DNA from: Eutreptiella sp. 'Long Island Sound 2002'
Taxonomy: Eukaryota; Euglenozoa; Euglenophyceae; Eutreptiales; Eutreptiaceae
Assembly (NCBI GenBank): GCA_964036045.1
Contig: OZ038380.1
Location: forward strand, 69,486,186 to 69,550,185
Length of the DNA stretch: 64,000 nucleotides
Reading direction: 5' to 3'
Below are positions 1,501 to 61,500 of the stretch, one piece after another. The notes under the pieces were generated by a model, which was not told where the DNA came from, did no database searches, and saw only the letters and a list, made by a program, of their open reading frames with translations. A program made the position numbers and the translations under genes. Position 1 is the stretch's first letter. Each line of letters starts with the position of its first letter.

Positions 1501-1664
1501 GCAATTTGAAGAAATTCACATAAATTCGCACGAAATTCGTACGACATTCGTACGAATTTCGTGCGAATTTCACGTGAATAGAAATGTGTGAATATTCTGA
1601 AAATGTGCAATTCGCATGAAATTCGTAAAAATTTCGTACGAATTTCGTACGAATTTCACATGAC
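1501..1664. repeat. Palindrome cluster P1a (ATTCGTACGAAT)
   Basis: Repeated full and half copies of the self-complementary word ATTCGTACGAAT, with variants ('cgcacgaaatt', 'cacgtgaat'). It lies directly upstream of the D-type start at 1,404, between B and D of element E1. The same word fills the other two spacers of this element. Confidence 0.9.
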
Positions 1665-2078
1665 TGTCACAGAATTTCTGCCGAAGCCTCATCCTTCTGC
1701 CCTCGTTGACCCTCACAAAGCAAGCACAGGATGGTGCACATGGGTTATCACACACCCAGTCCAGTGGTTGTCATTCCGGCTGACACTCAGCCAGCAGTGT
1801 AACACGTAAGGGGGCATAGCATACCCCAAATAAAATACAAACAGTTCCGCAGAAAATATCGCAAACAGGTCAGGGGGCATAGCGTACCCCAAATAATGTA
1901 CAAACAGTGCTGCAGAAAATTTCGCACAGTGGGGGGGGAGTGCCCCAGATATCGGTCAAACTGCCCATGCTTGGGGGGGGGAGGGGGCAGGATAACATTC
2001 GTGGTGGTTAGAAAGGACAGGTGGTCCGGAGGGTAAAGGGTCAGCTACGCACCCCCCCCCCCTGGAGCAGAGCTCCGG
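1665..2078. other. Spacer between B and D remnants
   Basis: No gene seen. A ~61-bp unit containing 'gggggcatagc' and 'taccccaaataa' occurs twice in tandem (about 1,809 and 1,870), followed by G-rich sequence. Confidence 0.5.
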
Positions 2079-3555
2079 CTAGCGGAGCCCTGGGAGCTCT
2101 GCTCCCCCACCGCCTCCACAAAGGAGGGGTCCATGACCCGCGGACGTGAGGCGGTGGGGGGGGTATTGCCGGCGCACGTCCTCCATTGCGGCAGTCACCT
2201 TGGGGGCGTCGGGGGCCACGCTGTCCACATCGACCTGCTGGCCACTCGCCATCATGGCCATCCGCCGGCCGGTCGACACTGCCGACATCTGGCCGGCGCA
2301 TGCCTCGGCCTGGGCATGCCAGGCCTGTGCGCCGGCCAGGAGGTACCGGACACCGGCAGCACTGGCCCCCCCGTTGTCACCCAGGGGGGGGGGGGGGGCT
2401 CGGCACCCTCAGCCCTCTCCACTGCCTCTGCTGGCTGTGCCGCTGGCTTTGCCTTGCGCAACGTCGCCACATCGCGCTCAAGAGTCTTCACCTTGGTGGC
2501 CAGCCGGTCACGCTCCTTGGTGACGTCCGCCAACCGCGACTCGCAGTCCCGCCTGTCCTCGTTGGCACTGGACAGACGGGCCTCGAGGTCACGGTTGGCG
2601 GCCTCCGCGTTGATCGCGCGTGCCTCCCACGCCCCCGCCCGCTGCCGGTCCACCCACTCCTGCACCACCCCCCTCTGCCCCCGCCCCCCCACCGGCTCCG
2701 CCTGCTCCGCCCGCACTGCCCGCTCCGCCGGGGTGGCCGTACGCGGGGCTTTGGGGGGGGGGGGGGGGTGTCCCCTTCGGGGCGCCCTTTGCGCTTGCGC
2801 GTGAGGGGGGGTTCGTCCTCCTCGACGTCAGTGACGTCAGCCACCCCCATCTTCCGCTTCCTCCACACATGGACGCGCATGGCAAGCCATGCCACGTCCA
2901 CCCACTCCGCCCTCCGCTGCTCCCAACCCGTGAGCACATTCAGCCCAAAAACCCCAGCCGTCGTCACCGTCCCCGCCTCCCCAGTCCGCGCCACCCCCGT
3001 CTGCACCCGCCAGTGCCCACTCACAAGCCGGTAGGCAAACATGCCCACCAGCTCCTGCCCCGCAGGCAGGTTGGCCCCCCCCCGGACCACAATGGGGCAG
3101 GAGAAGGAGATGCGGAGGGTGCCCTGCTGCCCCCGCGACTCCAACACCATGTCCCACACGGCACTGAGATGCCGCTGCCGCCCATCCGGCCCGGGCGGCA
3201 CCTGCTGGGTCCAGGCCGGATCCGGCCGCCTGGCGGCCAGGGTGACCCGGTCCAGGGGGGGGTCGTTGTGGGCGTCGCCCAAATTGTCGCAGGACGGCTG
3301 GGGCACCACCACCTCGCGCGCCACATGTCCCCTGGCGGTGCTGGCCTCGCTGCCTCCCGAACGTCGAGAGCGCTACGACCCCTCATTGCGCACACTGCCG
3401 GCCTCGCTTGGCGCCCGTCCACCGCCGGTGCCTGCGGGCTGGTCGCCACCGGGGCCTTCGGCGGGCTCGGCGTGCTCCTCGGGCAATCGTGGCCGGGGCT
3501 TGTACTTGCGCTTGGTGTGGTGCCGAATATCCGGCGACCAAGCAGTGAGCGGGAC
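2079..3555 (-). pseudogene. B-family coiled-coil protein, frameshifted (element E1)
   Basis: Reading from an acceptor 'catctgcag' at 3,556, coherent protein segments continue through three frames. First comes a basic/Pro-rich N-terminus, then a domain around 'RISFSCPIVVRGG...GMFAYRLVSGHW', then a charged linker, and finally a long heptad-like coiled coil rich in Glu/Arg/Lys/Ala (about 2,450-2,640). The breaks fall at or next to G/C runs, notably the ~15-G run near 2,754 and the ~12-G run near 2,385. It corresponds in position and layout to the intact B at 37.4 kb. No enzymatic motif is seen; a structural or DNA-end-binding partner role is a guess. Some breaks could be homopolymer sequencing errors. 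Confidence 0.6.
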
Positions 3556-3813
3556 CTGCAGATGTGGGGAGGTGTGCCAGGCACAAATTGAGAAAGGGGG
3601 AGTGGACACGAGGCAATGCAAGAGCAAAAGGAGGAAATTGGACGAAATTCACAGAAATTCGTACGAAATTGGTACGAATTTCGTACGAATTTCACATTTC
3701 CAGAATATTCACACAAATTTATTCACGTGAAATTCGTGCGAAATTCCTACGAAATTCGTACGAATTTCGTACGAATTTCACGTGACACAAAGCAAACACA
3801 CAAGTAAGGACAC
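3556..3813 (-). other. Probable A-B intron with palindrome cluster P1b
   Basis: The A coding segment ends 'tgcgagtgcaag' before a donor 'gtgtcc' (3,813 downwards), and the B segment begins after 'catctgcag' (3,556). Between them, 3,634-3,786 is packed with ATTCGTACGAAT full and half palindromes. Equivalent donor positions occur in three other A copies, which supports this as an intron. Confidence 0.6.
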
Positions 3814-5733
3814 CTTGCACTCGCATGGGCAGGTGATGCTCCATGCCCCGGTCTTCGCGCACTTGGGCGACCGCCACGCCGGGACCGTGTTCACCAGGTG
3901 CCACAGTGTGGTCGGCCGACCCGGGGGGGCAATGCCAGACATGGCGAAGTGGATCTCCGACTCCACATCGACATTGTCCCCCTTGCAGACCTCCAGCTGC
4001 TGCACGCTGCCCACGAAGAACAGCATGCACTGCTCGCCGACGTCGATGACGGCGAGGTCGGAGGCCGGGGCCGACCAGGAGATGAAGGTGGGGTGGAAGG
4101 GGCAGGTGGGGGGGCCTGCCACGACCGTCTGGGGGGGGTCGACGAAGAGGGCTTGGGCAGCCTCCCCCTCCCACAACCGCACCCTCCCAACCGCCCCCTT
4201 CCCCACCCACAACACCTGGTCCACGCTGGGGCAGTCCCAGCTGGACAAATCCCCAGCAACGTCCAGGGCCTCCTTGGGGGGGGTGGCGTCCAAGTGTGTG
4301 GTGTTGGCCTGGTGGTGTTTGTGTCGGGTGTCGGGGGTCCACAAATTAAAAAGAGCCCCCTGCAGCCCATCCTTGGAGTCGGGGAGGGCAGGCAACCCAT
4401 GATGGCGGCTGGTGGCCACCATCAGCAGCATGTCAACCCGATGCAGCTCAACGGTGTCCCAGCGCGCCTCCCCCGCCTCCCCCAGGGCCGTCCCCGCCTG
4501 CACCGCCACCTAGGGTCCTCTGACAAGCAGAGGAAGCTACTCAGGTGGCACCCCCCCACCTCCCTGTCGTGGGGGGGGAGGACCTCGGGGTGGGTGGCCA
4601 CGTCGGTGTGGGGGAGCTGCGGCCCACTCCCCACACTCGCCACAATGACGCTGCCTGGCGTCATTGGGTGGAGGTCCCCAACCCCAGGGACACTTTCGGT
4701 GAGGTGGGGGTGGAACTTCTTGAAGAGAGCCCCCCCCACCCCCGACCCCAAGGTGCTCTTGCTTTGCCAACGGCGGGGGAGCGCAGGATCCTTGGCCTGC
4801 TCCTCACTGTGCGCGGCGTTGAAAAGGAGCTCAAAATTTTTTGCGACGACTTTTTCGTCGCCGTTGCCCCACGCCTTCATCACCTTGTTCCACCCCACCT
4901 CACAATCCCGTGCCTCCACAAGCCCCCGAAGCACAATGTAGCCGTTCCCATCAACAAAGTTGAGGGGCGGCTGAGAGGGGCCAACCTTGTCGGGGGCGGG
5001 GTCAGGGCTGCCCATCACCCCATGAGAGGGGTCGGGAAGGGGTTCGGTGCGGACGGGGGGCTCACTTGAAATGAAGGGGGGGGCGCATGAGGCACCACGG
5101 TACCATTGCAAAGAAGTTGTGCTATAGAAGGTGGGGTGGGTGACATCGGGGACGTGCACCTGGGGGGGGATGGTGGGATGGAAAGGGGCGATGCCCAAAT
5201 CATCCCACAACCGGGGGTTGGCAAGGTGCCAAGAAAAGGGAAAAAAAGAGTGGTCTGCTGGTGCACCTGCAGCAAGATCCTGCAGGCACACCATATCGCA
5301 GTGGGGGGGGGGTGTGGACGAGGTTAGTGGTGGGGTACACCTGGACGTGGGCGTCCTTAGGCTTCCCCACAGGGTTAGTCCTCATCGAGTTGAGGAGCTG
5401 GTCAACAGTGGAGGGGAGAGGGGTTAGATGGAGAAATTTGAGGGAGGGGAGTTGGCGGCGCAGTTATCTCCACAGGGTTGTGGCCCATCCCCTCCCCCCG
5501 AGGTAGCTGTTGCGGGTGGGGCTGCGCATGTCGATGTGGATGACATCGGGGGAGGGGTCGAGGGAGGCTGCCCAGCCCACGATGTCATCCACCCCCAGTG
5601 CCCCCGACTCGTACGTCGCCTCCTCCAATTGATGGTGGGCGACGAGGAGGGCTTGGTAGTGGGCGAGGGTGTCGGCGGCGGGGTCGGGGCGCGAGGCCAG
5701 GCTTGCGAGTTGGGACATAGTCTGCTGGGACAT
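3814..5733 (-). pseudogene. A-family 2OG-Fe(II) dioxygenase-like gene, broken (element E1)
   Basis: Start at 5,733 ('MSQQTMSQL'). Homology to the A genes at 6.1-7.15, 31.7 and 53.1 kb continues across several frames. Visible parts are the N-terminal domain, a central 'FVDGNGYIVLRG' block, then an HxD-type iron-binding motif in 'GPQLPHTDVATHP' and a downstream His in 'SRHHGLPAL', as expected for a double-stranded beta-helix 2OG oxygenase. The C-terminus ends in the Cys motif 'CPCECK' just before a donor site. Frames change near 5,464, 5,300 and 4,500, mostly at poly-G/C runs. The intact relative's zinc-knuckle segment is not evident here. Substrate unknown. Confidence 0.65.
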
Positions 5734-5798
5734 GATTCAAAGAGAAGAATGCGAAGGCTTTGAGAGCTGTAACAAAGCGAAAGAGTGGAAAGGAGGGT

Positions 5799-5960
5799 AA
5801 ATTCGTGCGAAATTCGTACGAAATTCGTACGAAATTGGTACGAATTCCGTACGAATTCGTACGAAATTGGTGCGAACCTCACATTCTCGTGAATCTGTGA
5901 ATCTACCGTGAATTTTTGCGTGAATTTAGGTGCGTGAATTTCACATTCACGCGAATCTCA
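5799..5960. repeat. Palindrome cluster P1c (ATTCGTACGAAT)
   Basis: The third cluster of the E1 word, directly upstream of the A start, with degenerate 'cgtgaat' repeats trailing to about 5,960. It defines the 5' side of element E1. Confidence 0.85.
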
Positions 5961-6123
5961 CCAAATGTGTTAAACCATGCGGGGACTTGAAACCTCTAAA
6001 TTGCACCTATTTGTTGCATCTTACTTTGGGCGAAGGTAGCACGACAAAAGCACACGATAGCACCAAGTTACGAGCAAAACATAGCAACATTGGGTGAAAT
6101 TCACGGTACCATGAATCTCGTAT

Positions 6124-7151
6124 TCAAACGGCCGGTTCACGAAGGGTACATGCCATGCCCGAGCTTTTGGAGGGCTTTGACATGTACCGCTTGGGGGGGG
6201 CGGGGTCCTTCCTCTGCTCCTCCACCGGTTTCACATTGAACACCGGATCAAAATGTTGAGGAACTTGGTTCCCCCCCGCCCAAATTTTTCCCACCCTCCC
6301 CCAGGTGGTCTTGGAGTCCTCCGCGGCAAGAATGTCGCCGTGAACTGTGTAGCCGAGGCCATCCACGAAATTACCAGCCATCGGCGGGGCTGGGCGTTCA
6401 GCCAAAACGGAGGGGTTGGCGGTGGCATACGAGGGGGGGTCCTGCAGGGGTGCCTTGCGCAACGGGGGCTCGGGCGCAATGAAGGGGGGGGGGGGTCCGC
6501 GATTCCCTGATACCAACTGGACCCCTTCATCCTATGGAGAGTGGGCAGAGTGATATTGGGGATGTGGTGGAGAGGGGGCACGGTCGGGTGGCTAGGCAAG
6601 ATGCCCGGATCGTCCCACCACTGGGCCTTCAATGCCTGCCATTCAAAAGGAAGGTTGGAGTGGTCAGCCCGCGGCTTACCGGCAGGAAACTAGTTATTGA
6701 TGGCAATCATGGTCATCCGCATGGGGCAGTGAACAACGCTAGTGGTGGGGTAGATGGCACAGAGGCCGGGCTTGGGTTTGCCCACGGTGTGCGTGACCAT
6801 GATTCCCAAAAGGGTGCCACGGTTGAACCCGCGGGAATGAGCCGGACGGCCCGCAACTCCGGGAGGGCCACCTGCAACTCCCGAAAAAGGTGAGTGGCCC
6901 AACCTTTTTTCCCAAACCATCCCGTCCTTTCGGGTGTTCGCATGTGAATATGAATCAGCTGGGGGGGGAGTGGCCACCCCTTCGCCCACCCCACCACATC
7001 CTCCACTGCCAGCCCCCCCCGTGTACGTGGCCTTCTCCAATGTGCCGGAGCGAAGGGGGATGCCCTGGTAGTGGCCTAGGGTGCCATCGGACGGGTCGGG
7101 CAGTGAGGGTGACCCCTTCTGGGAAAGGGGACGCGACTGTTGAGTAGACAT
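6124..7151 (-). pseudogene. A-family dioxygenase-like gene, N-terminal half (element E3)
   Basis: Start at 7,151 ('MSTQQSRPLS'). It parallels the gene at 3.8-5.7 kb block by block: 'GHYQGIPL', 'VGKPK...YPTT', 'ADHSNLPFEWQ', 'WWDDPGILPSHPT' and 'NFVDGLGYTVHGD'. Several frames are used and the match stops near 6,130, before the iron-binding HxD motif, so no catalytic core remains. The G-runs at 6,191 and 6,485 coincide with frame changes. It is a separate, more diverged copy in the same orientation, between palindrome types P2 (upstream) and P1 (downstream). Confidence 0.65.
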
Positions 7152-8280: not shown

Positions 8281-8285
8281 TCTCC

Positions 8286-34550: not shown

Positions 34551-34551
34551 A

Positions 34552-34725: not shown

Positions 34726-34754
34726 CCTCTCCTACTTTGTTTCCAGCTGGCACC

Positions 34755-35705: not shown

Positions 35706-35762
35706 TTCATTTTATGTTTCCCCTTTTCGCTTTAGCTCTCAAAACTTTCATATTCTTTGATA

Positions 35763-38597: not shown

Positions 38598-38600
38598 CTA

Positions 38601-39707: not shown

Positions 39708-39722
39708 GTCCTCTTATTCTTC

Positions 39723-41381: not shown

Positions 41382-41447
41382 AAAACGACCACAGATGCTT
41401 TGTGCCAAGTGTTTTGTGTTGTTTGTCCTAGTGAGGGATGGAGGAGG

Positions 41448-41575
41448 GGTGCGCGATAACTACCCGCGATAACTGCGCGATAACTGAGTTATCGCGCGAT
41501 AACTAGCGCGATAACTAGTTAGAGCAAGGTGCTCTAACTGCGTTCTAACTCTGTTCTAACTGTGCTCTAACTCTT
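41448..41575. repeat. Palindrome cluster P4-guest 4
   Basis: 'gcgataactgagttatcgcgcgataactag' type repeats (given in part) after the D stop, then 'gttctaact' words toward the right inverted repeat. Confidence 0.9.
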
Positions 41576-41726
41576 TGACCCCCCCCCCAAAAACCACCCC
41601 CATGATGCGGGTTATGTGGGGAAAGAAAGGGGATGGGGGGTTTTTGAGGGTGCTGAATCCATTTTTTTAGGTGGTTTGCCCCAAAATTGAGGGTAGGTGG
41701 GTGTTCCAGAAATTGCGTTCTAACTA

Positions 41727-41762
41727 GGGGTTCCGCACCACGCCCTAGAACGCTGCATCCCA
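41727..41762 (-). repeat. Right 36-bp terminal inverted repeat of guest element
   Basis: Exact inverse of 35,377-35,412, followed by the duplicated 'ca'. Confidence 0.95.
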
Positions 41763-41764
41763 CA

Positions 41765-42810
41765 CATGGTGGGCAATGTGGGGGGGGGATGATGCAGCTT
41801 ATTTACTGGCCATGGATGCCACTCATGGCCTCAACGAACAAGTTGCTGACTTGGAGGCAAATGAGGATGTGGTTTGGCAAGGCAATGTATTAGGATTTAG
41901 CTGCATCATTACAGGGGACGGCAAGAATCTTCTTGCAGGAAATCCATCACGAGTATCCAAGTGTTGGATTTGTGATGATGACCAAAGCCTCCTTTTGTTC
42001 ACCGGGTGCATGGATGGTGTTAGGTGGGGGGCCTACTTGAGATGCATCCCAGTAAGTAGAAGAGTAGGGGACTATGTTCATGCCACCAGCCGGGTCCTTT
42101 GCATTTTGGTCAAAAGACTTAGGAAGGAGCTCCATAGTAGGGGCATCCATCCAGGTGTGCGAGCATTGGATGCTATAGTGAATGATGTTAAGGAAGCTTG
42201 CAAAGGCATCCCAGAAAGTGAGCGCATTGCCCCCAGAAGGGCTAAGGAGCACACTTTTGACCTAACCATGGCACTTGCATTTATGGCAAAACCTGTGTGG
42301 CATGGTGAGATGATTAACGTGGTGAAGCACTATATGCCCGATGTTGTTAGCCCTGCAGGGCCCTATATTTGGGTGGTGGTGCACACCTTGCTTCGCCAAT
42401 TTGCAACAATTCACCAATTTTGGCGACAAAAGTCATACTTCAATGAACCCGAGGTCCTTTGTTATTGCAAGGCTGTTGAACAATTTGCAACTGGGTGGGG
42501 TGACCTTGGGTGGAAAGTGAGCACATGGGTCCATTGGACATGTGCCCACTCCCCCTTTTTTGCAAAGAAGTATAGAAACTTCTATATTTTCTCTAGTATA
42601 CCTAGTGAAAAGAAAAATAGCCCTTTTAAAAGGGATTTGCACAATAGTTGCAAAGGTTGGGCATTGCTCAACCCCCGCCTATCAATTTTCTCCATGGGCC
42701 ATGTTGTAAATATGTCTAACCTTGACTTAGGTCTCTTGGCAAGGAAGATCATGCAAGCAAAAGAGAAGGAGAGGCGTGGCATCCTCTTGGGGAGGAAGTA
42801 CTTGAAATAA
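41765..42810 (+). pseudogene. D-family D-D-E protein, 3' part of the split host gene
   Basis: Resumes with 'TWWAMWGGDDAAYL', matching 'ASWFCMDGGDEQAFL' of the intact D. The second Asp lies in 'IITGDGKNLL', the CxxC in 'KCWICDDD', the conserved 'SRRVGDY', and the C-terminal Glu in 'SSIPSEKKNSPFK'. It ends '...LLGRKYLK' with TAA. Together with 34,755-35,376 it forms one complete family member, broken only by the guest insertion. Confidence 0.85.
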
Positions 42811-42876
42811 GGGGGCCCATTGTGTTATGTGTCATGCTTGCGAATGTGAAGGGCGTTCGGAGGGACCTTTGGGGGG

Positions 42877-43006
42877 GGTGCACTAAGGGGTGCACTAAGG
42901 GGTGCACTAAGGGGGGTTAGTGCGCACTAAGGGGGTGCACTAAGGGTGCAACAAGGGGGGGGTTGTTGCGCAACAAGGGGTGCACTAAGGGTGCACTAAG
43001 GGGTGA
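42877..43006. repeat. Palindrome cluster P5 (TTAGTGCGCACTAA)
   Basis: 'gtgcactaagggg' repeats with inverted joins 'gttagtgcgcactaa' and 'gttgttgcgcaacaa'. Follows the host D stop; a copy of the same word is at 34,690-34,715. Confidence 0.9.
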
Positions 43007-43192
43007 TGTGCAAATTTGAAAATCGGTGTTGTACCCCTAGGAACGAAGAACCCAGGGGTGCTAGGGCACAAACAAGCACTCCATGTGCCTATGAGGTCCC
43101 TCCAACCCCCCCCATGGCCTAGTAAGGTAGTTTAGGGGGCTTTGAAAAAAGGGTGCACTAAGGTACCCTTTTCCAGATGCGCCTGGTGCGTG

Positions 43193-43450
43193 ACACCCCA
43201 TAACACATGTTACCGACGGTGTTACCAATGTGTTACCCGAGGGACTTCCTATGTTACCGGTAACATGTATGTGTTACCCGAGCGCTCTGGTTGTTAATTG
43301 TTTTTGTTACCACCGCTGTAACCCTTGGGGTGTTACCCGGGTAACCATGCCCCCTTCCAATCCCACTTTGTCCCTATTAGTTACCCCCTGTGTTACCTTT
43401 CATGTAACCCCTTCATCACACTTTGTTTTAGTTACCCCATGGTGGCTGGG
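43193..43450. repeat. Palindrome cluster P6 (GTTACCCGGGTAAC), right block 1
   Basis: Many GTTACC/GGTAAC words, some joined as GTTACCCGGGTAAC. Lies downstream of the transposase stop on the minus strand. Further P6 blocks are at 45,035-45,100, 45,650-45,900, 46,133-46,180, 47,050-47,100, 47,300-47,455 and 47,640-47,900. Confidence 0.95.
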
Positions 43451-43457: not shown

Positions 43458-44918
43458 TCATGCACACATAGTCCCTTCCCTCCCTGCCCTGCAAGAAGTA
43501 TCACTGCGCCGTAGGACTGCTGTTTCTTCTGAGTTCAAACTTTCAGTTCTGAATGCCACTTCTGGAAACAACCACTGTAGGAGTGCAAATGCACATCGCA
43601 ATGAGCACACTTGAACCAAGTGCGCCCCCTTGCATACTTTGCAAGTGCCTCGGGTATCTACAAGCACCGGCGTGTGCACAGCGTGCCCAGGGGAGACAAA
43701 CTTTTCCAAAATATCCCATTGGAAGTCCCAAAGGGATTTCTTTTTGGGTATCAAACCTTGGAGTCGGCAGACTGCAAAGGTATTTACAATCGCGTACCCA
43801 AACAAGAAAGCCTTCAAGGCACGGGTCCAACTCTTGAATCTGCCTGTCTCACGGTGTTCTAGTGCCATTTGATTGGCACTGTCAACACTGTTGGCTAGCT
43901 GCCTGTATGCAGCCACAACAGGTGGGAGCTCATAACCACCTCTGTGGCGCACCCACTCATTGTCGAACACACAGTTTGACAGAAATGGAACCACACGTGG
44001 TGGTTTGCTACCCACTTTTGGGTTTTTGTAGACATGGAGGCTATACTTGCCTCCTTTGACATACGTTTCTGCTGCAATGGAGGGTCGCATACTATCCCCA
44101 GCCAGGGAAACCCCTTCCTGATCCCTTTTGCATAGGAACAAGAAGGGTTGCTGACGCTGTGCCATTTGGTTTGCCACTAGGTGGCTTCCAAAGTATGAGT
44201 CGCACACAATTGCAGTGCGAGTAGGGAGTAGGTCAGCCCTTCGGTGTACCATCTCCCGGGCAGTCCGAGGTTCAGCCACCTGGGGGTGATCCCGGAAGAC
44301 CCTGACCCTTTTGCCTGCATACAAAAAAATATCAGTTATAAAAGGGTGCACTGAGTCACCCAGGACATACAATTTAATGCCTGTGCTATGCGGTTTTCTG
44401 GGGATGAACTGCCGCATGGGTCCAGCCCTTTTCCCCTTGTGGGGGACAATGGATTCATCCCTTGCGGCAGCCCACCCCCATACCCACAGGCTGGACCAAT
44501 GGGCATTAATAGCCTCAAGGAGCTCTGCAGTACCACAATTGGACAGGCGGTGTATTTTATAATACTCCTCCCTGGTTAATAGGGAGGCCAAGCCTTTGTG
44601 TGCACACAAAGCTGTGGGATGCCATACATCATCGACTCGTCTTGGTCGCCTCATCCCCAGCATAACCTTGAATAGGATGTAGTTGGTGAGCTTGGGTACC
44701 AATTCGCTGGCACCATTTTTTTCCAAAGCCTCACTCAGGCAGCGCAGGATTGGGTGGAACATGTCATCCATGGCCTCGGTAATGGTGGCATACTTCTTTT
44801 TAGGATGTCCCCCAAGGGTAGCTGCTGATAGGGCCCCTCTCACATGCTTGGGGGGTAGTCCCCTTCGTTCGAACACCATTGCTCTCCGCAATGGACGCCG
44901 GCTGGGTCGGATGGGCAT
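43458..44918 (-). CDS. piggyBac-type transposase, 486 aa, intact
   Basis: Start 44,918 ('MPIRPSRRPL') in a strong 'ccaccatgc' context 5 bases after an acceptor-like 'tttcacag'. The longer upstream frame only overlaps the partner gene out of phase. The DDE_Tnp_1_7-type core is clear: D154 in 'RDESIVPHKGKR', 'KPHSTGIKLYVLGDS', D240 in 'IVCDSYFGSHLVANQM', 'FLFLCKRDQEG', and D346 in 'NSVDSANQMALEH'. The C-terminal Cys/His cluster is C426-x2-C429-x3-H433-x4-C438-x3-C442, as in the DNA-end-binding tail of piggyBac proteins. It cuts and pastes the element using Asp-chelated metal; intact, so possibly active. Slightly shorter than the insect enzyme (~590 aa). Confidence 0.92.
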   Translation of the reverse strand: MPIRPSRRPLRRAMVFERRGLPPKHVRGALSAATLGGHPKKKYATITEAMDDMFHPILRCLSEALEKNGASELVPKLTNYILFKVMLGMRRPRRVDDVWHPTALCAHKGLASLLTREEYYKIHRLSNCGTAELLEAINAHWSSLWVWGWAAARDESIVPHKGKRAGPMRQFIPRKPHSTGIKLYVLGDSVHPFITDIFLYAGKRVRVFRDHPQVAEPRTAREMVHRRADLLPTRTAIVCDSYFGSHLVANQMAQRQQPFLFLCKRDQEGVSLAGDSMRPSIAAETYVKGGKYSLHVYKNPKVGSKPPRVVPFLSNCVFDNEWVRHRGGYELPPVVAAYRQLANSVDSANQMALEHRETGRFKSWTRALKAFLFGYAIVNTFAVCRLQGLIPKKKSLWDFQWDILEKFVSPGHAVHTPVLVDTRGTCKVCKGAHLVQVCSLRCAFALLQWLFPEVAFRTESLNSEETAVLRRSDTSCRAGREGTMCA

Positions 44919-45091
44919 GGTGGCTGTGAAAATGGGTGGACAGGAAAACACCCCCCCCCCTTGCACACGTGCACATCGTTCACAAATTACCCCTGAACCC
45001 TGAGGCAAAGCTAGAAGGAAAGAATGAGGACGTCGGGGTAACACCCCTGGTAACTGGGTAACTGGCAACTGGGATACAAGGGTGGTAACAT

Positions 45092-47255
45092 TCACCACTG
45101 ACAATCCAACCATTGTACAAACATAGAGGCCACAACAGGCCTGATCAAAATAAAAAGGCCAGGCAGTTCCAGTGGGGGTGGGCTCTTGTGGGTGGACCTC
45201 AGATGCAGCATGACCCCAATGTGGCGCCAGGTTTGAACAATCCTGGCATCCAGGTCTTCCTGGCTGAGTTCCGCCAGGTCCTGGGTCCTCAGCTGCAGTG
45301 ACCCGGGGATACTGGGACCACTCTGCAGGCCTGCACGGAGTTTCTCTAGGTGGGACAAACCTGCAGACAGAGAATATCATTACAGACAATTACATTTGTA
45401 TGTAAGTAGGTCAGTTAGTTCAACACCCCAAGATTGCAACACCATACCTGAGTATGCACTTTCAGTTTTGTGGGCTTTCTCGGGGCCTCCCTTGAGCTGC
45501 GCTGCTGTGGGGCCCTCCCCCAGCCTCTCCGGCTGCCTCTTCGGGGCTTCGGCATCATCATCCTCCACGTCCTTGAGGGCAGAGCACCCGTCGCAGCTGA
45601 GCTCCACCAGCAGCAGATTCACTGTGACAAAGAGTGCAAAGCATGTTACCAGGGACATAAAATGGGTGTTACCCGGTGTTACCCGGGAGCAAAAACCTGA
45701 CACACAGTGTTACCACCCATGTAACCCATGACCTGTTACCCGGGAAAAGTGTTACCCGGACACAAAAACCTGACACACAGTGTTACCACCCATGTAACCC
45801 ATGACCTGTTACCCGGGAAAAGTGTTACCCGGACACAAAAACCTGACACACAGTGTTACCACCCATGTAACCCTTGCCCTGTTACCCGCGATTTACGTTA
45901 CCCAGCAGGAAAAGACAACATACATGCTTCAGTTCGCGCTTCATCATCATTGAGCAACCCCTCGGTCCCCATCTCGTCCCGCCACTTGTGCTTCAGCCGA
46001 TCCAGGCACGTCGGGGAAGCTCCGGTGTGTGCCCCTCGAGCCCCAATTCGGTTCACCATGACAGGGATGGCGATTCCCAACCTACATGGGAACACAGTGG
46101 GGAACAGTGAGATGGCAGTTCAACATACCAATGTGCTGTTACCACGTGTGTAACCGTTGACCCGTTACCAGGGTAACACGAACCACACACCTTCCAGTCA
46201 GTGCCCATCCAAAGCTTTCTCTTCTTCTTGCACTTGTGGCTCTGGGGTCTTCGGCCGCGTTGAGGGGGGTCCCATCTTCAGCCACAATGGCCGCACCTGT
46301 CACCCCCAGACACAGCTGGTAGTGGGTTGCAACCTGTTTGAGGCTGGACCCCAACTCTTCCCTGACATGGGACTTCGCCCGTTCAAGGTGTTGTAGGTAG
46401 GTTGTTGAAGTAAGAGTTTTTTCTGCCCTTGTGGGGCGGGCAGAGATGGACTTTGCCCCACCAGAAGCCGGCCCGGTAAACATAAAACTGGGGTGTGCCG
46501 TCTTCCCTTTCGCCTTTTTTGTTTTCCCCTTGGTTTGTGGTACTGGTTCGTCCTCCTCAGGGGTTCCTTCCTCCTGGACCACCACCTCCTCGTCAGGATT
46601 TTCACCTGGTCCCTGGTCATCATCATCATCATCACTGTCCACCTCCTTGTCAACTGCCATTTGGGACCTCTGCCGGACTGCCTTGGCTGCAACTGAAGCT
46701 GGGGTGAGTGTTCGGGTCTGTTTTGGGGGCTTCAAGGCTGATTTGGTGGGGGCTTTGCTGGCTGCTGCTGAATGACTGCCACTGCCTGTTGCCTGCACCT
46801 CCTTGCCCTTGCCCTTCTCTTGCCCCCCTTTGTAAAATCCCCAGGTGTTCCCACACTCCTTTGCCTGAAAAGTCACTGGCCCGTGGAGGGTCTGGATGTC
46901 CAGACATTCCCCCTCATCAACGTCGTAGGCCAACGCCGTCTTCATGGTCAGGGCCGAATGGCTGCCCCTGGAAACCCAGCCGCAAACAAAGTTGGGCTGG
47001 CCTTGTTTCTTGGCCTTCAACTGCAAGGAAAGTAAGTGCAGTAAAAATGGGGGGTGTTACCACGTGTGTAACCGGTAACAGGTACGTGTTACCCAACCCG
47101 TTGAAAACAGGGCACACCAAGCAATGGTGCAAAGGGGATACCTGAAGGACCACAGGAGCCCCGGCACGGGCAACATCACCCCAGCGGACACTGTACAACG
47201 TCGATCCGGCAGTCAGCTCCTTGTGAAACTTCTTGGGAACCGGTGGAAGGGGCAT
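45092..47255 (-). CDS. piggyBac partner gene, five exons, 514-aa predicted product
   Basis: Exons 47,255-47,142, 47,020-46,191, 46,081-45,924, 45,621-45,448 and 45,360-45,092 join in one open frame of 515 codons with GT-AG borders throughout (for example ttcag|gtatcc, ccttgcag|ttg). The N-terminus is 'MPLPPVPKKFHKEL'. The middle is Lys/Ser/Thr-rich with a run of acidic residues ('VDSDDDDDDQ') and 'TKGKTKKAKGKT'. Exon 3 has 'RLKHKWRDEM', exon 4 a 'CDGC' next to acidic residues, and exon 5 is helical. Introns 1-3 are full of GTTACC palindromes. A homologue in the same order lies beside the second piggyBac-type element. Function unknown; perhaps an accessory DNA- or chromatin-binding protein. 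Confidence 0.75.
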
Positions 47256-47900
47256 AATGAGGAAAAACAGGGCCCTAATGGGACATGATTGGCATGTGTA
47301 GTGTTACCGCATGTGTAACCGCTGACCTGTTACCCAGGAAAAATGTTACCCAGAGTGAGAGATACCTCTGCAGATCTATTGGGCACATGTGTAGTGTTAC
47401 CGCAGGTGTAACCGCTGACCTGTTACCCAGGAAAATTGTTACCCAGAGGGAGAGATGCCTCTGCAGCTCTATTGAGCACAATTTTAGGTTTGCAAGAAAT
47501 AGGCACGTCAAATCAAGACAAAAAAATTCATTGTGGAGTGCAAGGGTGTTAAGATCAAACTGACAGGGTCCTGAAGGTCGCGTTTTCTTGAGGGAATTTT
47601 ATTTTCAATTATTATTGCACCTCTGCCCATTTGGTTGTTGTTACCGCTGATGTAACCGCTATGGTGTTACCCCGTATACCTGTTACCGCGAAACTCAAGG
47701 CTTGCAGCAGAACACACGACAGGCAGGTAACACATTTGTGGTAACAACAAGCACAAACAGGCAAACTTTGCAATTCTTCCTGTCACATGTGTTGAATGAG
47801 AGGGTGACACTATGTTACCAAGGTCAGGCACCTCAAAAAACCCCCATATAACCCAACTTCAAAAAAATGACCTGTTACCCCAAATTTGACCCTGTTACCG

Positions 47901-52479: not shown

Positions 52480-52783
52480 CTCTCTCCTACCATAATATTA
52501 ATGTCATACTTGCATCATTGGTGTACGGGGTTTGGTGATGCCCCCCCCCGCCCCTATTTTGAGGATGCCGGAACCCATATGGTGAGCATAACGTGGCATA
52601 CCAGGATTACCTGGGAGTATACGGGTAAAAAAGGGGGTTTTGGGAGAAAGGGGTATGTGGCATGTACAGGTGGCTACGAATGTATAATGCGCAATGCATG
52701 CATAGGTGGGTTGGGAAATACCTCTAGTTTGCCAATTGTGATGATCAATGTTGTGTTTGAAACTACCCCATTTTGGGCTCTTG

Positions 52784-52884
52784 GGGTATACGGCCGTATA
52801 CTCAAGGCTCCAATACCTCAGCATACGGCCGTATACTCTGGAGTATACGGCCGTATACTTAGAGTATACGGCCGTATACTGGGG
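52784..52884. repeat. Palindrome cluster P8a (AGTATACGGCCGTATACT)
   Basis: Four copies of the 16-18-bp perfect palindrome within 100 bases, upstream of the A fragment at 53,109. Confidence 0.95.
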
Positions 52885-53108
52885 GTATTTGTTTGCACCA
52901 GGTGGTTGTTTCAAGTTGAAAAATTCCATTGTTGTGCCTTTTGTGCCCATCTTGTTGCATGCTTTTCCTTTGCCAAACAATTGCACACCACTTGAAACCA
53001 ATCCAGGCTCATACTTCACTCATGATTGCAATGTATGTCTCCATATGTGTCCATTCCAATCCATATTATGTTGCTTCTTGCTCTCCCAGGCCCTCTTTTT
53101 CTGGCACC

Positions 53109-53765
53109 ATGAATGATGTGGGCACTCATGCCTTGTTGAAGAAGTGGGCCGATGCCGTAGCTCTCCGCACAGGGCACAGAGGTGTTTACAGCCCCGACAG
53201 CACACGCACCGTGTCTTGGGCTTCTCTTGAGAAATGTGCTTGGTCCACCTTAGACACCCCTGTGGCCCTGGTGAAGGTAACGCAACCCGGCGTTGCCCAA
53301 CCCCACAGCCTCACTGACCCTTTGTTGTCGTTGTTTGACAACAACCCTAATCTGCAAGCTATTGTGCTGCAGGTCCATGATTCGGATGCTCGCGCTGTCG
53401 TGGAGCACGTTAAAAAAAGCTGTGGGGGACCAAATAGGGGGATGAGTTTCTATTTGAGGGAATGGAAGATGCCGGATGGCACTCCGGGGATTCATGTCTC
53501 GGGGGACGTGGCCGCTGGCTGGCGCAAATGGGAGTGCAAGGCCCAGCAAGTGCAGCGGGGGCATTGGGAGGACACCGCCCCCCTCTACTCCCTCCACTCC
53601 CAATCGCCATGGTCCTGGCATGCCGATTTGGAGGGCCACACCCTCCCCACCTGGTACAAGGGTACTGGGATGCACCCCTCCCTTTTCTTCCCCCTCACCA
53701 CCACCCCCCTTTTTGGTGTTGAACACCATCGTGTCTCCATCCCCGTTGACGTTTGGTTTGGATAG
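53109..53765 (+). pseudogene. A-family dioxygenase-like gene, N-terminal fragment (218 codons)
   Basis: ATG in 'ggcaccatga' 20 bases after an acceptor-like 'ctcccag', as in the 31.7-kb gene. 'LTDPLLSLFDNNPNLQAIVLQVHDSD' (read in parts) matches 'LSDLLFSILQTNPHLDGFLFDLSLAD'; later 'APLYSLHSQSPWSW' matches 'LPVYSLQNSSGLQW'. It stops at 53,763, well before the iron-binding motif, and the following sequence is unrelated. Flanked by P8 clusters, so it marks a further, largely deleted element. Confidence 0.7.
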
Positions 53766-53980
53766 AGATCAGGTTTGGCATGCAATGCATGCGGAAGAAG
53801 CATCGTGCACCAAAGCACATGTAGGTATATATCATGTGATATGATATGATTTGCAATATGCGTAAGTGTGTATATTAGGTATATATGACATAGGGAAGTG
53901 GATCACATTTGACATTTCGGATGGGACATCAAACAAGGATGCTTCTCGTGGTCTTCTGCTTTGCTCATATGGTGCTCTTT

Positions 53981-54231
53981 TGTAACTGCTGAGATGTGGC
54001 CTTTTTTGTTCACATGGACACGTACGCGTTGAAAGATCAACTCGTACGCACTGATTTTCCACACCGTACGCACTGGGTACCGAACGCGCACGCGCTGCGT
54101 ACGATTTTGCGCCAAAATCGTACGCAGTGCGTACGGTTTGGTAAATCAGTGCGTACCAGTTGGGATTTCAACACGTACGTGTCGGGGCTTTAACACGTAC
54201 GTGTCCATGTGAACAGATCTTAGCAGTTACA
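53981..54231. mobile_element. 251-bp foldback element with P9 words
   Basis: 'tgtaactgctgagat' (53,981) and 'gttcacatggacacgtac' (54,009) are mirrored by 'gtacgtgtccatgtgaac' (54,197) and 'atcttagcagttaca' (to 54,231). The interior alternates 'gtacgcactg' and 'cagtgcgtac', so the whole element can fold on itself. No ORF. Confidence 0.8.
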
Positions 54232-54338
54232 TTTGTGTGTACAATGTGTTTGGGGGTTGCAGGGTCATGAGTACTTGCAGGGGGGGGGGGGGGGTAGTTG
54301 ATGAGAATGGTGGCATGGGTGGGAGGCAGAAAGTCCCC

Positions 54339-54435
54339 GTATACTCCAAGTATACGGCCGTATACTTCTGAGTATACGGCCGTATACTCCGAAGTATACG
54401 GCAAGAATACTTCTCCAATACTTCGAGTATACTGC
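54339..54435. repeat. Palindrome cluster P8b
   Basis: AGTATACGGCCGTATACT and half copies, the downstream partner of 52,784-52,884. Confidence 0.95.
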
Positions 54436-55096
54436 CCAATACCTCAAAAAGTGTAGATTGCAACACACAGGTGTGGGTGTATGGAATTGGCTTTCTGGTT
54501 GTTTGACCCTGCCCCCCCCAATTTTCAGGGTGCTAAACTCATTTTTTCATATCCCAAGGGCACACGGAACGACTAGGTACATGTGCCAAAATGGCTGTTT
54601 TGAGGGGGTAACTTTGGTATGCCAGCTTATGCTCACCATACATGGAACCGTCCCCGGGCCGGGGTCACAATTTTGCATCCGCTACGCCTTTGTTGAGATG
54701 CTTCATTGGAAGGCGCCGAGTTGGTGTGGAGGGGTGTAGGGAGCATTCGCACCATACCGTGATCCTTTAAACAAAGAAGGAGTCCTCGAAGTATTAACAA
54801 TTTTTTGCAAACCCTTACCCTTTAGAACCAAAGCATGACACCGAATCTTCCACTTCTTCACACTTTTGTAACTACGAAGCCAACCCCAGATACTGTACAT
54901 TCGCCAACTCCTGGTCAACTCCATGTCGAGAGCATTCAACTTGCTTGTACTTGTGCACTGTGTTGTTGCTACGCCTTGTGCATGAAACGTGAGGAACTAT
55001 CTATATTTTACAGCTTATGGTTGCGTTGCTTTGTTGATATGTTGCAATATGTGGGTTTTTTGGGTCGAAGTCAACTTTTTGGAAGCCAAGTCAAAG
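54436..55096. other. Gene-poor stretch
   Basis: No gene seen. Confidence 0.35.
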
Positions 55097-55155
55097 TTGG
55101 CGCGCCAACTTGGCACTTGGCGCGCGCCAACTGCAAAGTTGGCGCGCCAAGTGCC
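55097..55155. repeat. Palindrome cluster P10a (TTGGCGCGCCAA)
   Basis: Three copies of the 12-base palindrome, one with a longer CGCGCG core. Confidence 0.95.
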
Positions 55156-55768
55156 AAGCTGTGGGCCCATCTTTGGATTGACCACCTGTTGGGATGGGCC
55201 CGCAGGTGGGGGCACATTGCCATTTTTGCCGCCTTCAAAGGAGAGGGGCGGCACAAAGCCCTGAAATGTGAAATTTCCAAGCGCAGCTTTTGAGGTGGAA
55301 GTAAAGGCGGCCGGGTGTCCAGACTGCGGGGGGCCAGAGTGCGGGTGAAGGGGGGCAAGGGGGATCACACGCGGAAGGGGTGGGGGGGAAGTGATCCGCT
55401 CAGATAATCTGGACTGGGGGTTGTATAATAAAAATTTTTCTGTTTGGGAGTCGTCGTGGACGAAGCAAAGGGGGTACATAGAGAATAAGGGGGTCTTCGT
55501 CCAGGCTGAACAGGGGTCCCAAGGCATGTGACCTCTATATATGATTGATATGCCTCCATGGCCCCCAGTTTTGAGCTACAGCTCCACAGTGTATACTACA
55601 TCGGGAAGCACATCTCTTGCACATTGTTTTACACAGTCTTTTGCACATTCATCAAGAAAAGATGGAACAATTCTTTCTTCGTGCCAAGTGTGCAAGGGCA
55701 GGTGAGGGACGGAATTTCCAGTGACAACAATAGTGTGCAAGTCGATGGTTTGATCGGTGGGGGGAGAT
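55156..55768. other. Segment between P10 clusters
   Basis: A minus-strand frame (55,160-55,527, '...TPLFSMYPLCFVHDD...') is open but matches nothing clearly; a distant resemblance to the 'PLYSL' region of A proteins is too weak to call. Confidence 0.3.
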
Positions 55769-55830
55769 TTGGCGCGCGCCAAGTCCGGACTTGGCGCGCC
55801 AACTTGCGACTTGGCGCGCCAACTTGTGAA
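55769..55830. repeat. Palindrome cluster P10b (TTGGCGCGCCAA)
   Basis: Three further copies, 610 bp from P10a. Confidence 0.95.
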
Positions 55831-56320
55831 TTTGCGCGAGCCCAGGCCCGGGAAGCCAACTTTGGGACTTGTTTACCGTGTAGGAGTGTTTTCAGCACGA
55901 GAGGGGCCTGAAACCCGGGGTTTTTCAGGGTAAGAAGTTTCCATTTACACCAAAAAGGAGGAAAAAATCCCTAGGTAGCCGGTGTAACAACATAATAGAC
56001 ACCCGCCATGATTTGGCTGCATTCCGAAGCAAGTTGGCGAATGTCTCTTGGCTTCGTAGTTACATTCCTTCGCACACACCTTCACAAAAGGGGCTTAGAG
56101 CCGAATGTACCGAGAGCCTAACTTGCTACAGTCTTGGAATTGTGTGCCTTGCATACAAGGGCGGGGCGAGTTTCTTTTGTCACGAGCTCTGCGTGTACCG
56201 ATTTTGCCGTTGGCATGTGAGGGTAGACCCACAATTGTGGAACGACCATGAGGAGAGAGGCTTCCACCATGTGTTCGGGTAACCTTCGCTTTCCAAGTCG
56301 TGGGTTCCTAAACTAATATA
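55831..56320. other. Gene-poor stretch
   Basis: No gene or repeat recognised. Confidence 0.35.
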
Positions 56321-58882: not shown

Positions 58883-59250
58883 TGTGCAGCCGAAAAAAGC
58901 AGCCGAAAAATTTTTCGTCACAAAATTTTATGAAAAGTGGTACACCTATGTTTTTGAACGTGCCGAACGCGATGGAAACGTCCGTTTTTGATGGTTTGAA
59001 TTTTTTATTTTTGGCTGCATATGTGCAGCCGGTATGCACCCGAAAGCCTCAATTGGAGCAGCTTTTCAACAGAATTTTGGGTGCACTATGCACCCGGGTT
59101 GCACATATGCAGCCAAAAATGCACCCAGTGTCCCTAATTTTCCGGGAATCACACCGTTTGGCTGCATCTTTGCAGCCGATTGGCTGCACTGTGCATCCAA
59201 TCGGCTGCAAAGTGCAGCCATTTGGATGCATAGTGCAGCCGTTTAAATAA
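58883..59250. repeat. Palindrome cluster P11a (GGCTGCATATGCAGCC)
   Basis: Alternating 'ggctgca' and 'tgcagcc' with variable centres between the left end and the partner-gene start. Further clusters at 60,412-60,546 (an intron) and 61,262-61,500 (3' side). Confidence 0.95.
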
Positions 59251-59298: not shown

Positions 59299-60667
59299 AT
59301 GGCTTTGCCCCCCCTGCCTGACGACTATCAGCGGGAAGGTGGTTACCTCGCGGTGACCAAGCCGGAGGATTTGGAGTTTGAGACGTGCATCTGCTTCCAG
59401 GTTGGTTGCCCCTTGACTCCCGTTACACCCTGCTACGTGTGTTCCCCTGCATTCACGCTCCCTTCGCAGCCCTTAATTCCCATCCATTCCCTGCACTCAT
59501 CCACTTCGCATGCAGAGCACGGCGGCACCCAAGCTGTACTATGCAGCTTGGGTGCAGAAGAATGCTCCAAAGAGCAAGAAGCTGTGGTTGACGAGCATCG
59601 TCAGCTACAAGGTCACCGGTCGGGGCAACAACCGGGTGGCCGGTGCCACAACCAACGTGGCGGATGGTACATGGAAATACTCTGAGGTGTGCAGCTGTAG
59701 TCGCCTATCCTATAGCTTGCTTTTGTTCTTCATTGTTGTCGTGTGGTTTACCTAGGAATTTCCGTCTCCGTGCACTTGTTTTTCACATCACAGCGTTGTG
59801 GTCCCAATGGAAGGATGAGTCGGATGAGGAAGGACAGGAGGAGGAAGAGCAGCAGCAGGAGGAGGAGGAGGAGGAGGAGGAGGAGGAGGAAGGGGAAGAC
59901 CCAGGGAAGGTCCCCATCACCCCTCCCCCCAAGAAGGCCCCCCGCACCAGCCAAGGGAAGGAGATCGTGAAGAAGGGCAGCCCCAAGCCCGGCCCCAAGA
60001 AGAAGGCCAAGAAGGCACTCCCCGCCACAAGTTTCAAGAAGATCGTGGTCAAGGAGGGGCCAACCCGGAGGCAAGCAGACTTGCGGCGCCCTGGGTTCAG
60101 GCAGAAGATGCAGCAGGCCTTGGAGACCTGCGCAGAGGCCGGGTACAACTTTACCTGGGCCAAGTGGCGCAAGCACTACGCCGAGTGCATCGCCCACGCC
60201 GCCAGGGGGGCAGCGGGCCTACTACAAGGAGGTCTTCTGCCTGTCTACTACGTTGGTGTCCTTGGCCAGCGGCGACATTCTGCAGGCTGCCGGCAAATGC
60301 CACGCTGGTTGGGCCGGCTCAGTGCAGCGCGCCAAGGGGAAGCTGCAGGCGATGTGTACGGAGAACAAGGTTGACAAGGTCCCGTATGAATTTGCAGGTG
60401 TGCCTGCTGCATCCAGTCTTTTGGGCTGCCCTGTGCAGCCCGTCGGCTGCACAGTGCAGCCAATTTGCTGCATCATGCAGCCATTTGGCTGCATACCTGG
60501 CTGCATACCCGGCTGCACTGTGCACCCGAGTGGCTGCAAAGTGTAGCCCACAGTATATTCCTTGTTCTCTCATAGGAGACTGCCTTCAGTTTTTCCTCGA
60601 ATGCGAGAACTGCAACGATGCAGTGGACTCGGACGAACTGCCGGAGGATGAGGAGGGCGGCGACTGA
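59299..60667 (+). pseudogene. piggyBac partner gene homologue, four exons, frameshifted
   Basis: Exon 1 is 59,299-59,400 ('MALPPLPDDYQ'). Exon 2 is 59,516-59,686 (phase 0, 'STAAPKLYYAAWVQKN...WKYSE'). Exon 3 is about 59,794-60,397, with a long Glu run, 'TPPPKKAPRTSQGKE' and 'YNFTWAKWRKHYAEC'. Exon 4 is 60,576-60,667 ('GDCLQFFLECENCNDAVDSDE'). The last exon resembles exon 4 of the 45-47-kb gene ('LLLVELSCDGCSALKDVEDDD'). One base is out of phase at the exon 2/3 junction and one extra G in the run near 60,206 shifts exon 3. Intron 3 contains P11 palindromes. Function unknown. Confidence 0.65.
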
Positions 60668-60689
60668 GGGGGAACACTGTATCACCACC

Positions 60690-61209
60690 AATGTAGATGC
60701 AGGATATGCACTGCATGTGTACAAAAACCCCAAGGTCGGGGGGAAGGCTGCTCGTGTGGTCCCGCTGATGACCAATTGCGCACCTGAGGAGCAGAACACT
60801 GTCTCCAAATCAGGCAAACCAGTGCCTGGAGTAATTCAGGCGTACAGGGATTTGGCCGGGGGGGGTGGACACAACCAACCAACTCGCCTTACAATGGCGA
60901 GAAAGGGGGAGATTTATGAAATGGTCCGATTCTGTTCGGGCGTTCATGCTGCGCTACGCAGCAACAAATGCATATCTTGCAGCGCGGTACACAAAGTCCA
61001 TCCACCACGACTGCTCAATGTACGATTTTCAACTGCTTGCATTGGAACACATGTTCCCAAGAGAGTCAGCACCAGACCACACACCGTCAAAAAGCCCAAA
61101 TAAGAAACGATGTGCTGTTTGTTGGGGGCGCACCTACTGGCATTCCCCGACGTGTAATGTGCCATTGCATGTACAAGGACAATGTTGGAACGCACACCAC
61201 TGTCAATAG
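60690..61209 (+). pseudogene. piggyBac-type transposase, C-terminal remnant
   Basis: 'ALHVYKNPKVGGKAARVVPL' corresponds to 'SLHVYKNPKVGSKPPRVVPF' of the intact enzyme. After a frameshift in the G-run near 60,860 the frame continues 'VDTTNQLALQWRERGRFMKW', including the third catalytic Asp, and ends in a Cys/His-rich tail ('CAVCWGRTYWH...'). The first two catalytic Asp blocks are deleted, so this element cannot move itself. Confidence 0.85.
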
Positions 61210-61261
61210 TCTCCGATGAATGTCTCTTCGTGTTAACGTGCTTCTCACAGGGTTTGGGGTG

Positions 61262-61500
61262 TTTGGCTGCACATGGGCTGCACATTGGCTGCGCAGAGGT
61301 TACTGTGGCTGCGCATGGGCTTCGTTTTCTGGGCGTGGCTGCACACTGGCTGCATGTTTGCAGCCAAATGGCTGCAACTATTGGCCGCATAGTAATACAT
61401 ACTGGCTGCATGTATGCAGCCAGGTTGGCTGCATACATGCAGCCAGTTCGGCTGCATACATGCAGCCAGTTGGCTGCACCATGCAGCCACTTTTTTTGGC
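61262..61500. repeat. Palindrome cluster P11b
   Basis: At least ten 'ggctgca'/'tgcagcc' words, several joined as perfect palindromes ('ggctgcatgtatgcagcc'). Confidence 0.95.

What the first reader, a model, noticed from the sequence alone, without database searches (positions are those of the whole stretch)
1501..61500. Every element carries its own self-complementary word, clustered only in spacers and introns
At least ten distinct perfect palindromes of 12-18 bp occur in clusters: ATTCGTACGAAT (E1), GGCGCGAA/TTCGCGCC, AAGAAACGCTATC pairs, TTATCGCGCGATAA (host with C flanks, guest with CTAG flanks), TTAGTGCGCACTAA, GTTACCCGGGTAAC, AGTATACGGCCGTATACT, the GTACGCACTG foldback, TTGGCGCGCCAA, and GGCTGCATATGCAGCC. 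Each type is confined to one element and interrupts no recognised coding exon. Most contain CpG or other methylatable centres. They could be binding sites for a dimeric element protein, methylation/oxidation switches for the encoded oxygenases, hairpins for RNA processing, or products of intron-generating repeats (introners). I know of no description of this pattern.
Basis: partly seen in the sequence, partly recalled or inferred. Interest (0 to 1): 0.92.

Follow-up and report, generated by a model that had tools for sequence, protein, structure and literature searches.

The report
Jumping genes with private repeat-word arrays
Several families of DNA transposons in this large eukaryotic genome each carry clusters of their own short, often palindromic DNA word beside their genes, probably a private landing site for a protein made by the same element, as in a known plant anti-silencing system.

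Summary
The arrays are real: 16 word arrays in the window beat 20 dinucleotide shuffles, and three words occur 5,970, 1,934 and 3,118 times genome-wide against 0 for the reversed control. They belong to nested DNA transposons, e.g. guest 35377-41762 inside host 31284-43200, with terminal inverted repeats and 2-bp target duplications. Complete copies of two families are built array - A (oxygenase-like) - array - C/O2 - array - B (presumed transposase) - array. Families with homologous A and B proteins carry different words. Seven of 207 word hits fall in recognised genes.

Best reading (inferred): the arrays bind an element-encoded protein that regulates and perhaps de-silences its own family, like Arabidopsis VANDAL/VANC or maize Spm/TnpA. 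In the A/B-type families arrays are CpG-rich and genes CpG-depleted, but array CpGs mutate as fast as coding CpGs. Binding and oxygenase action are untested; both structure models failed.

The parts
1..6150 (.). E1 element, right end TGTACCC-type repeat at 6134-6150; left end outside the window
172..1407 (-). E1 B-type ORF (presumed transposase), 40% identical to the B piece of L011
1493..1657 (.). E1 word array (CGTACGAA, 11-bp units)
3634..3779 (.). E1 word array
5799..5876 (.). E1 word array
31284..43200 (+). Host element with TGGGGTGT ends and 2-bp duplication, interrupted by the guest
31440..31640 (.). Host array 1 (TTATCGCGC and variants)
31692..33677 (+). Host protein A, oxygenase-like
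33680..33880 (.). Host array 2
33881..34539 (+). Host C/O2 remnant, appears to lack its 5' part
34540..34720 (.). Host array 3
34752..35376 (+). Host B, part before the guest
35377..41762 (+). Guest element, ends TGGGATGCAGCGTTCTAGGG, 2-bp duplication CA
35553..35705 (.). Guest array 1 (TTATCGCG 9:2)
35763..37149 (+). Guest A, lacking about 740 bp found in other copies
37170..37356 (.). Guest array 2 (11:1)
37380..38594 (+). Guest C, coiled-coil region (start not proven)
38598..39230 (+). Guest O2, same frame as C after one stop; no Pfam match
39478..39658 (.). Guest array 3 (10:1)
39714..41378 (+). Guest B, presumed transposase; 79 scored genomic copies at 99-100% identity
41451..41575 (.). 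Guest array 4 (1:5)
41763..42807 (+). Host B, part after the guest
42875..43005 (.). Host array 4 (TTAGTGC variant, CpG-poor)
43208..43397 (.). pB1 word cluster (TGTTACC)
43461..45389 (-). pB1 transposase, PF13843
45644..45891 (.). pB1 word array
47293..47480 (.). pB1 word array
52578..54640 (+). E5a element copy, ends TATGGTGAGCATAA, 2-bp duplication
52786..52880 (.). E5a array (AGTATACGGCCGTATACT)
52920..53762 (+). E5a A remnant
54337..54442 (.). E5a array
54867..56064 (.). E5b short element, ends TGTAACTACGAAGCCAA, 2-bp duplication
55085..55158 (.). E5b array (TTGGCGCGCCAA)
55769..55838 (.). E5b array
59154..59241 (.). E6 array (GGCTGCA..TGCAGCC)
60424..60540. E6 array, not flagged by the scan
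60576..61206 (+). E6 fragments similar to the pB1 transposase
61403..61489 (.). E6 array

Best explanation
The arrays are family-specific docking platforms of multi-gene DNA transposons. Shown: each family repeats a short word of about 8-12 bp, in one or both orientations, in the short non-coding gaps before, between and after its genes; the layout is the same in complete copies of two families; words differ between families whose proteins are homologous. Inferred: a protein made by the element, most simply a dimer such as the coiled-coil C/O2 product or B, binds the words at high local density on one face of the helix, marks the element's own copies, controls their promoters and ends, and counteracts silencing. 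The oxygenase-like A and O2 products may be delivered to the methylated CpGs there. Different words keep families from acting on each other.
For: Enrichment and clustering of words. Four arrays around A, C/O2 and B in guest copies and in L025 of another family. Homologous proteins with different words: guest/host B 36-38% identical, both with TTATCGCG; E1/L011 B 40% identical with CGTACGAA against GCGCCAA; L025 B 29-33% to guest/host with CCGTATAC. piggyBac-type elements have arrays of their own. Spacing: 52 distinct distances from 8 families peak at a period of 10.5-10.75 bp, 0 of 2,000 random sets as strong, and each leave-one-family-out set peaks at 10.5 or 10.75. CpG o/e 1.2-3.0 in arrays against 0.25-0.82 in genes with TpG+CpA excess in the A/B families, one array excepted. 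Non-CpG word bases differ between guest copies in 6 of 1,229 cells, array spacers in 36 of 3,094. An E1-type copy without recognisable genes keeps four arrays. VANC targets have the same architecture (PMC5735166 sections 8-9).
Against: No binding, expression or methylation data. CpG transitions at array CpGs (10 of 1,211) are as frequent as at coding CpGs (25 of 3,150), so array CpGs are not visibly spared. pB1, E6 and host array 4 are CpG-poor. No DNA-binding domain was recognised; A reaches PhyH only weakly (E 0.015, 1 of 9 members); no TET/JBP match; B and A models have mean pLDDT 46 and 36. Tandem duplication inside arrays can create a spacing period without binding. In the full copy L012 array 3 has no intact palindrome and is not flagged by the scan.
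Confidence: 0.5

Rival explanations
1. Transposase-binding repeats only: the arrays are enlarged subterminal binding sites used in excision and integration, and the inner arrays are by-products of tandem and segmental duplication inside the element.
For: Guest terminal arrays 1 and 4 are mirror-oriented (9:2 against 1:5). Deletion derivatives L008, L010 and L014 keep both outer arrays and lack the inner ones; L013 and L020 keep both outer ones and one inner one. An E1-type copy without recognisable genes keeps arrays. CACTA elements have such repeats (PMC2613891, passages).
Against: The same inner positions before the C/O2 and B genes recur in two families, guest and E5a. L019, a very short derivative, has no array above threshold. 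Internal deletions keep the ends by definition.
Confidence: 0.25
2. RNA-level elements: the inverted words fold in a polycistronic transcript and guide cleavage, polyadenylation or trans-splicing between genes.
For: Arrays lie between stop and next start codon; z-scores -3.2 to -12.9 in 12 of 14 pieces; pyrimidine-rich stretch and AG between array and start codon in L015 and L016 (read by eye).
Against: Two pB1 pieces do not fold (z -1.5, +0.2); several arrays are almost one-directional; perfect palindromes fold by construction; arrays also lie beyond the last gene.
Confidence: 0.1
3. Selfish or mutational tandem repeats: replication slippage and gene conversion make word arrays in any non-coding gap, without function.
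For: Tandem duplications are visible inside arrays; number and order of words vary between diverged guest copies.
Against: Fixed position, one word per family, agreement of word between arrays kilobases apart, helical spacing, and words somewhat more conserved than spacers.
Confidence: 0.12

Closest known systems
Arabidopsis VANDAL transposons and VANC anti-silencing proteins
   Same: Family-specific short motif repeated at high density in non-coding parts of related DNA transposons; motif differs between related families; arrays evolve by tandem-repeat turnover (PMC5735166, abstract and sections 8-9; PMC10398659, passages)
   Different: VANC proteins carry DUF1985/DUF287, and VANDALs are Mutator-like. 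Here no such Pfam matches, 2-bp duplications, oxygenase-like genes, many self-complementary words, arrays at each gene boundary of the complete copies read
CACTA/EnSpm subterminal repeats bound by TnpA
   Same: Element-specific repeated motifs, some forming palindromes, near both ends; motif divergence said to be paralleled by the binding protein (PMC2613891, passages); TnpA linked to demethylation (PMC10398659, passage citing the original work)
   Different: In the passages read the repeats are at the two ends; here also between genes. Ends are not CACTA, duplication 2 bp rather than 3 bp, B matches no CACTA model
Fungal TET/JBP-bearing DNA transposons (KDZ and others)
   Same: DNA transposons that carry a dioxygenase gene with the transposase (PMC12730594, abstract and passages)
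   Different: A and O2 match no TET/JBP model here; Kyakuja and Zisupton make 7-8 bp duplications; no word arrays in the passages read
piggyBac (PF13843)
   Same: pB1 and L014 transposases match the family model
   Different: Multi-copy word arrays are not a feature I know of piggyBac (recalled, not searched)

Membership tests
VANDAL/VANC | Family-specific motif in dense non-coding arrays | tested here: met
VANDAL/VANC | Mutator-like transposase | tested here: not met
   No such Pfam match for B of guest (P0002, E up to 5) or L025 (E up to 1)
VANDAL/VANC | VANC protein with DUF1985/DUF287 | tested here: not met
   No such match in the A, C and O2 proteins scanned
VANDAL/VANC | Protein binds the motif and lowers methylation | not testable with these tools
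   needs bench work
CACTA/EnSpm | CACTA-type terminal inverted repeat | tested here: not met
   Ends are TGGGATGC, TGGGGTGT, TGTACCC, TGTAACTACG, TATGGTGAG
CACTA/EnSpm | 3-bp target duplication | tested here: not met
   2 bp in guest (9 of 10 copies with both ends), host (2 of 2), E1-type (1), E5a (2), E5b (1)
CACTA/EnSpm | Repeated subterminal motif | tested here: met
   arrays 1 and 4
TET/JBP transposons (KDZ) | TET/JBP domain | tested here: not met
   no Pfam match up to E=5 or 1
TET/JBP transposons (KDZ) | 7-8 bp target duplication | tested here: not met
   2 bp
2OG-Fe(II) dioxygenase (protein A) | HxD...H...R motif and fold | tested here: inconclusive
   HRD and VHRGG visible in most rows (meaning recalled), weak PhyH hit in 1 of 9, model pLDDT 36
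piggyBac (pB1, L014) | PF13843 transposase | tested here: met
   E 9e-19 and 1.3e-11
piggyBac (pB1, L014) | TTAA target site | not tested
   ends not mapped
Introners | element forms an intron of a host gene | tested here: not met
   arrays lie between stop and start codons, or beside end repeats, inside whole transposons

The most novel reading that the evidence does not exclude
A sequence-addressed self-demethylation system that arose independently of plants: each transposon family carries a private self-complementary CpG word as an address, read by its own coiled-coil/oxygenase-like product, which oxidises methylcytosine only in the family's own promoters and ends; families diversify by changing word and reader together.
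Probability: 0.2. Interest if true: 0.85.

Novelty: new variant of a known kind. Interest (0 to 1): 0.6.

Why it matters
Sequence-specific anti-silencing by transposons is described in Arabidopsis. If these arrays work the same way, the strategy evolved more than once, here beside element-encoded oxygenase-like proteins and in two transposase classes of one genome. Several homologous readers with different words in one genome would make the joint evolution of reader and word directly testable, and could supply sequence-addressed epigenome tools.

Tried and rejected
Introner, RNA-hairpin and universal CpG-switch readings were tested and set aside as the common principle. A protected-CpG signal was looked for and not found. 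Membership of KDZ, CACTA and VANDAL was tested and not met. Two AlphaFold2 jobs (B; A) gave models too poor for a fold search, so none was run. Rfam and ARAGORN found nothing in the window. A scan of IMG/VR for guest B found nothing. The organism was not identified: short fragments of dinoflagellate and Euglena spliced leaders were not found in the window or the 20 loci then held, and passages of a Euglena gracilis assembly paper did not settle it (PMC11252322; PMC12455990, passages). Genome counts for the TTGGCGCGC and GGCTGCA words were never obtained. First mutation counts included badly aligned stretches and were replaced, which keeps positions with local identity of 90% or more; the diverged copies L015 and L016 were left out of both counts. 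The spacing test had left out one distance under 60 bp and those over 60 bp; one search repeats it with all 52 distinct distances, and the peak moved from 10.25 to 10.5-10.75 bp.
Full report
What was checked. A scan for 8-mers present together with their reverse complement in 200-bp windows gave 17 regions above the maximum of 20 dinucleotide-preserving shuffles. Sixteen are word arrays; the other is a 162-bp tandem repeat. Not every item of the finding survives: one listed word is absent, one is a lone pair, the 25-kb group does not pass, and two words occur in more than one element.

Genome-wide control. TTATCGCGCGATAA has 5,970 places, AGTATACGGCCGTATACT 1,934 and AAATTCGTACGAATTT 3,118; the reversed words, of equal composition and also palindromic, have none. 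Of the first 50 listed places of each, 47, 45 and 40 have a neighbour within 10 kb, against 5%, 2% and 3% expected. These 50 are the first on contig C1, not a random sample. In four 10-kb stretches taken at round coordinates, one held an array, of a transposon word. The 16 loci were picked because they carry the guest word, so the further arrays around them are not a random sample either.

What carries the arrays. The guest element (35377-41762) has inverted ends TGGGATGCAGCGTTCTAGGG and a 2-bp duplication, seen in 9 of 10 copies with both ends, window included; L007 is the exception. It sits in the B gene of the host element (31284-43200); L018 is a host copy without it. Three full guest copies (L005, L006, L012) are 7.08-7.11 kb; their intact palindromes fall at 236/279, about 2,650, about 4,900 and about 6,820, except that L012 has none at the third place. 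In the majority letters of 13 aligned copies 308 word bases lie in the four arrays, none in coding, 2 elsewhere. L025, a complete element of the AGTATACGGCCGTATACT family, has the same order with its own word. L011 shows an ORF resembling the end of A by eye, then array - C - array - B with GCGCCAA (B confirmed by similarity). The window copies are partly decayed: guest A lacks about 740 bp, and host C appears to lack its 5' part. Of 79 scored genomic B copies at 99-100% identity, 78 have no internal stop, so the guest family looks young (7,740 candidates, only the best 79 scored).

Same proteins, different words. B proteins are homologous: guest/host 36-38%, E1/L011 40% over 160 residues, L025 to guest/host 29-33%, other pairs about 25%. 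A proteins of different families are mostly 23-28% identical, short matches higher; host A and P0046, a database protein, 44%. The words are TTATCGCG (guest and host), CGTACGAA, GCGCCAA, CCGTATAC and, beside an A gene in L016, CTTTCGTA. Three piggyBac-type cases, pB1 (PF13843, 9e-19), L014 (1.3e-11) and E6 (fragments similar to pB1), have their own words.

Word form. Some words are true palindromes repeated mostly every 20-22 bp; E1 has 11-bp units; the guest has an asymmetric word, mostly in one direction in arrays 1-3 and the other in array 4, with one or two abutting inverted pairs per array; host arrays are mixed (10:5, 7:7, 6:8, 2:9); pB1 is largely one-directional (8:1, 11:0, 8:1, 3:2). 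The 52 distinct distances between neighbouring words in 8 families favour a period of 10.5-10.75 bp, with 0 of 2,000 random sets as strong and the peak kept when any one family is left out (repeating with all distances). Tandem duplication can create such a period without binding.

CpG. In guest, host, E5a, E1 and the L011 family arrays have CpG o/e 1.2-3.0, genes 0.25-0.82; where TpG+CpA was counted (all but the guest) genes have an excess, the usual mark of CpG methylation. Exceptions: host array 4 (0.22), pB1 (0.57-0.67), E6 (0.13-0.59). The piggyBac-type L014 arrays are CpG-rich (1.35-1.39) beside a gene at 0.91. Between guest copies, C-to-T or G-to-A changes at array CpGs (10 of 1,211) are no rarer than at coding CpGs (25 of 3,150); so high CpG content is kept by selection or turnover, not by visible sparing. 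Non-CpG word bases differ in 6 of 1,229 cells, non-CpG spacer bases of the arrays in 36 of 3,094, a modest sign of constraint.

RNA. Of 14 array pieces folded, 12 have z from -3.2 to -12.9, two pB1 pieces -1.5 and +0.2. Palindromes fold by construction, so this is weak evidence, and it is absent in one family.

Mechanism. Dense, family-specific words in gene-flanking gaps, with homologous proteins but different words, match what Hosaka et al. found for VANC targets: a 9-base motif arrayed at high density in non-coding parts of one VANDAL family, differing between families and evolving by tandem repeats (PMC5735166, abstract and sections 8-9; PMC10398659, passages). CACTA elements also have element-specific subterminal repeats thought to be read by TnpA-like proteins (PMC2613891, passages). 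Fungal transposons carry TET/JBP genes (PMC12730594, outline, abstract and passages). I therefore think the arrays bind an element-encoded regulator. That this involves demethylation by A or O2 is a further guess: A has a visible HRD...HRGG pattern (meaning recalled) and one weak PhyH hit among 9 members, and O2 has no match. My paper searches listed no description of such arrays in oxygenase-bearing transposons; I saw only the listed titles and abstract starts, and the library lacks most subscription journals.

Verdict. A real and recurrent pattern, partly misdescribed, best filed as a new variant of a known kind of transposon architecture, with the functional step untested.

Noticed in passing
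window 38595-38597; 34213-34215; L025:5279-5281: C and O2 are in one frame separated by a single stop in guest, host and the E5a family. L026 lacks 84 nt spanning this stop. Intron, readthrough or chance deletion was not resolved.
   Followed up: partly
window 31284 and 43200: The host element itself sits in a stretch of TGTTACC words of the pB1 piggyBac-type element: nested insertion into another family's array.
   Followed up: partly
window 53981-54231: Short foldback element with ends TGTAACTGCTGAGAT and its own GTACGCACTG / ACACGTACGTGT words, inside E5a.
   Followed up: partly
window 48531-49981: 4.4 copies of a 328-bp tandem repeat at 99% match; ARAGORN found no tRNA in the window.
   Followed up: no
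window 16856-18217: About 9 copies of a 149-bp tandem repeat at 86% match.
   Followed up: no
window 56813-57109, 58294-58860, 62841-63155: Long AT-dinucleotide runs within larger repeated blocks (57074-58608 and 61609-63155 are 91% identical).
   Followed up: no
L009:4453-9048: E1-type copy rich in CA repeats, without recognisable genes, yet with four dense word arrays, inserted in a guest copy with a 2-bp duplication.
   Followed up: partly
L007:5881-6200, L013:3981-4260, L016:1101-1400, L017:9621-9900: Further arrays with other words (CAGTAAGG, TGGCCGAA, CTTTCGTA, CGGATATC), so there are more word families than in the window.
   Followed up: partly
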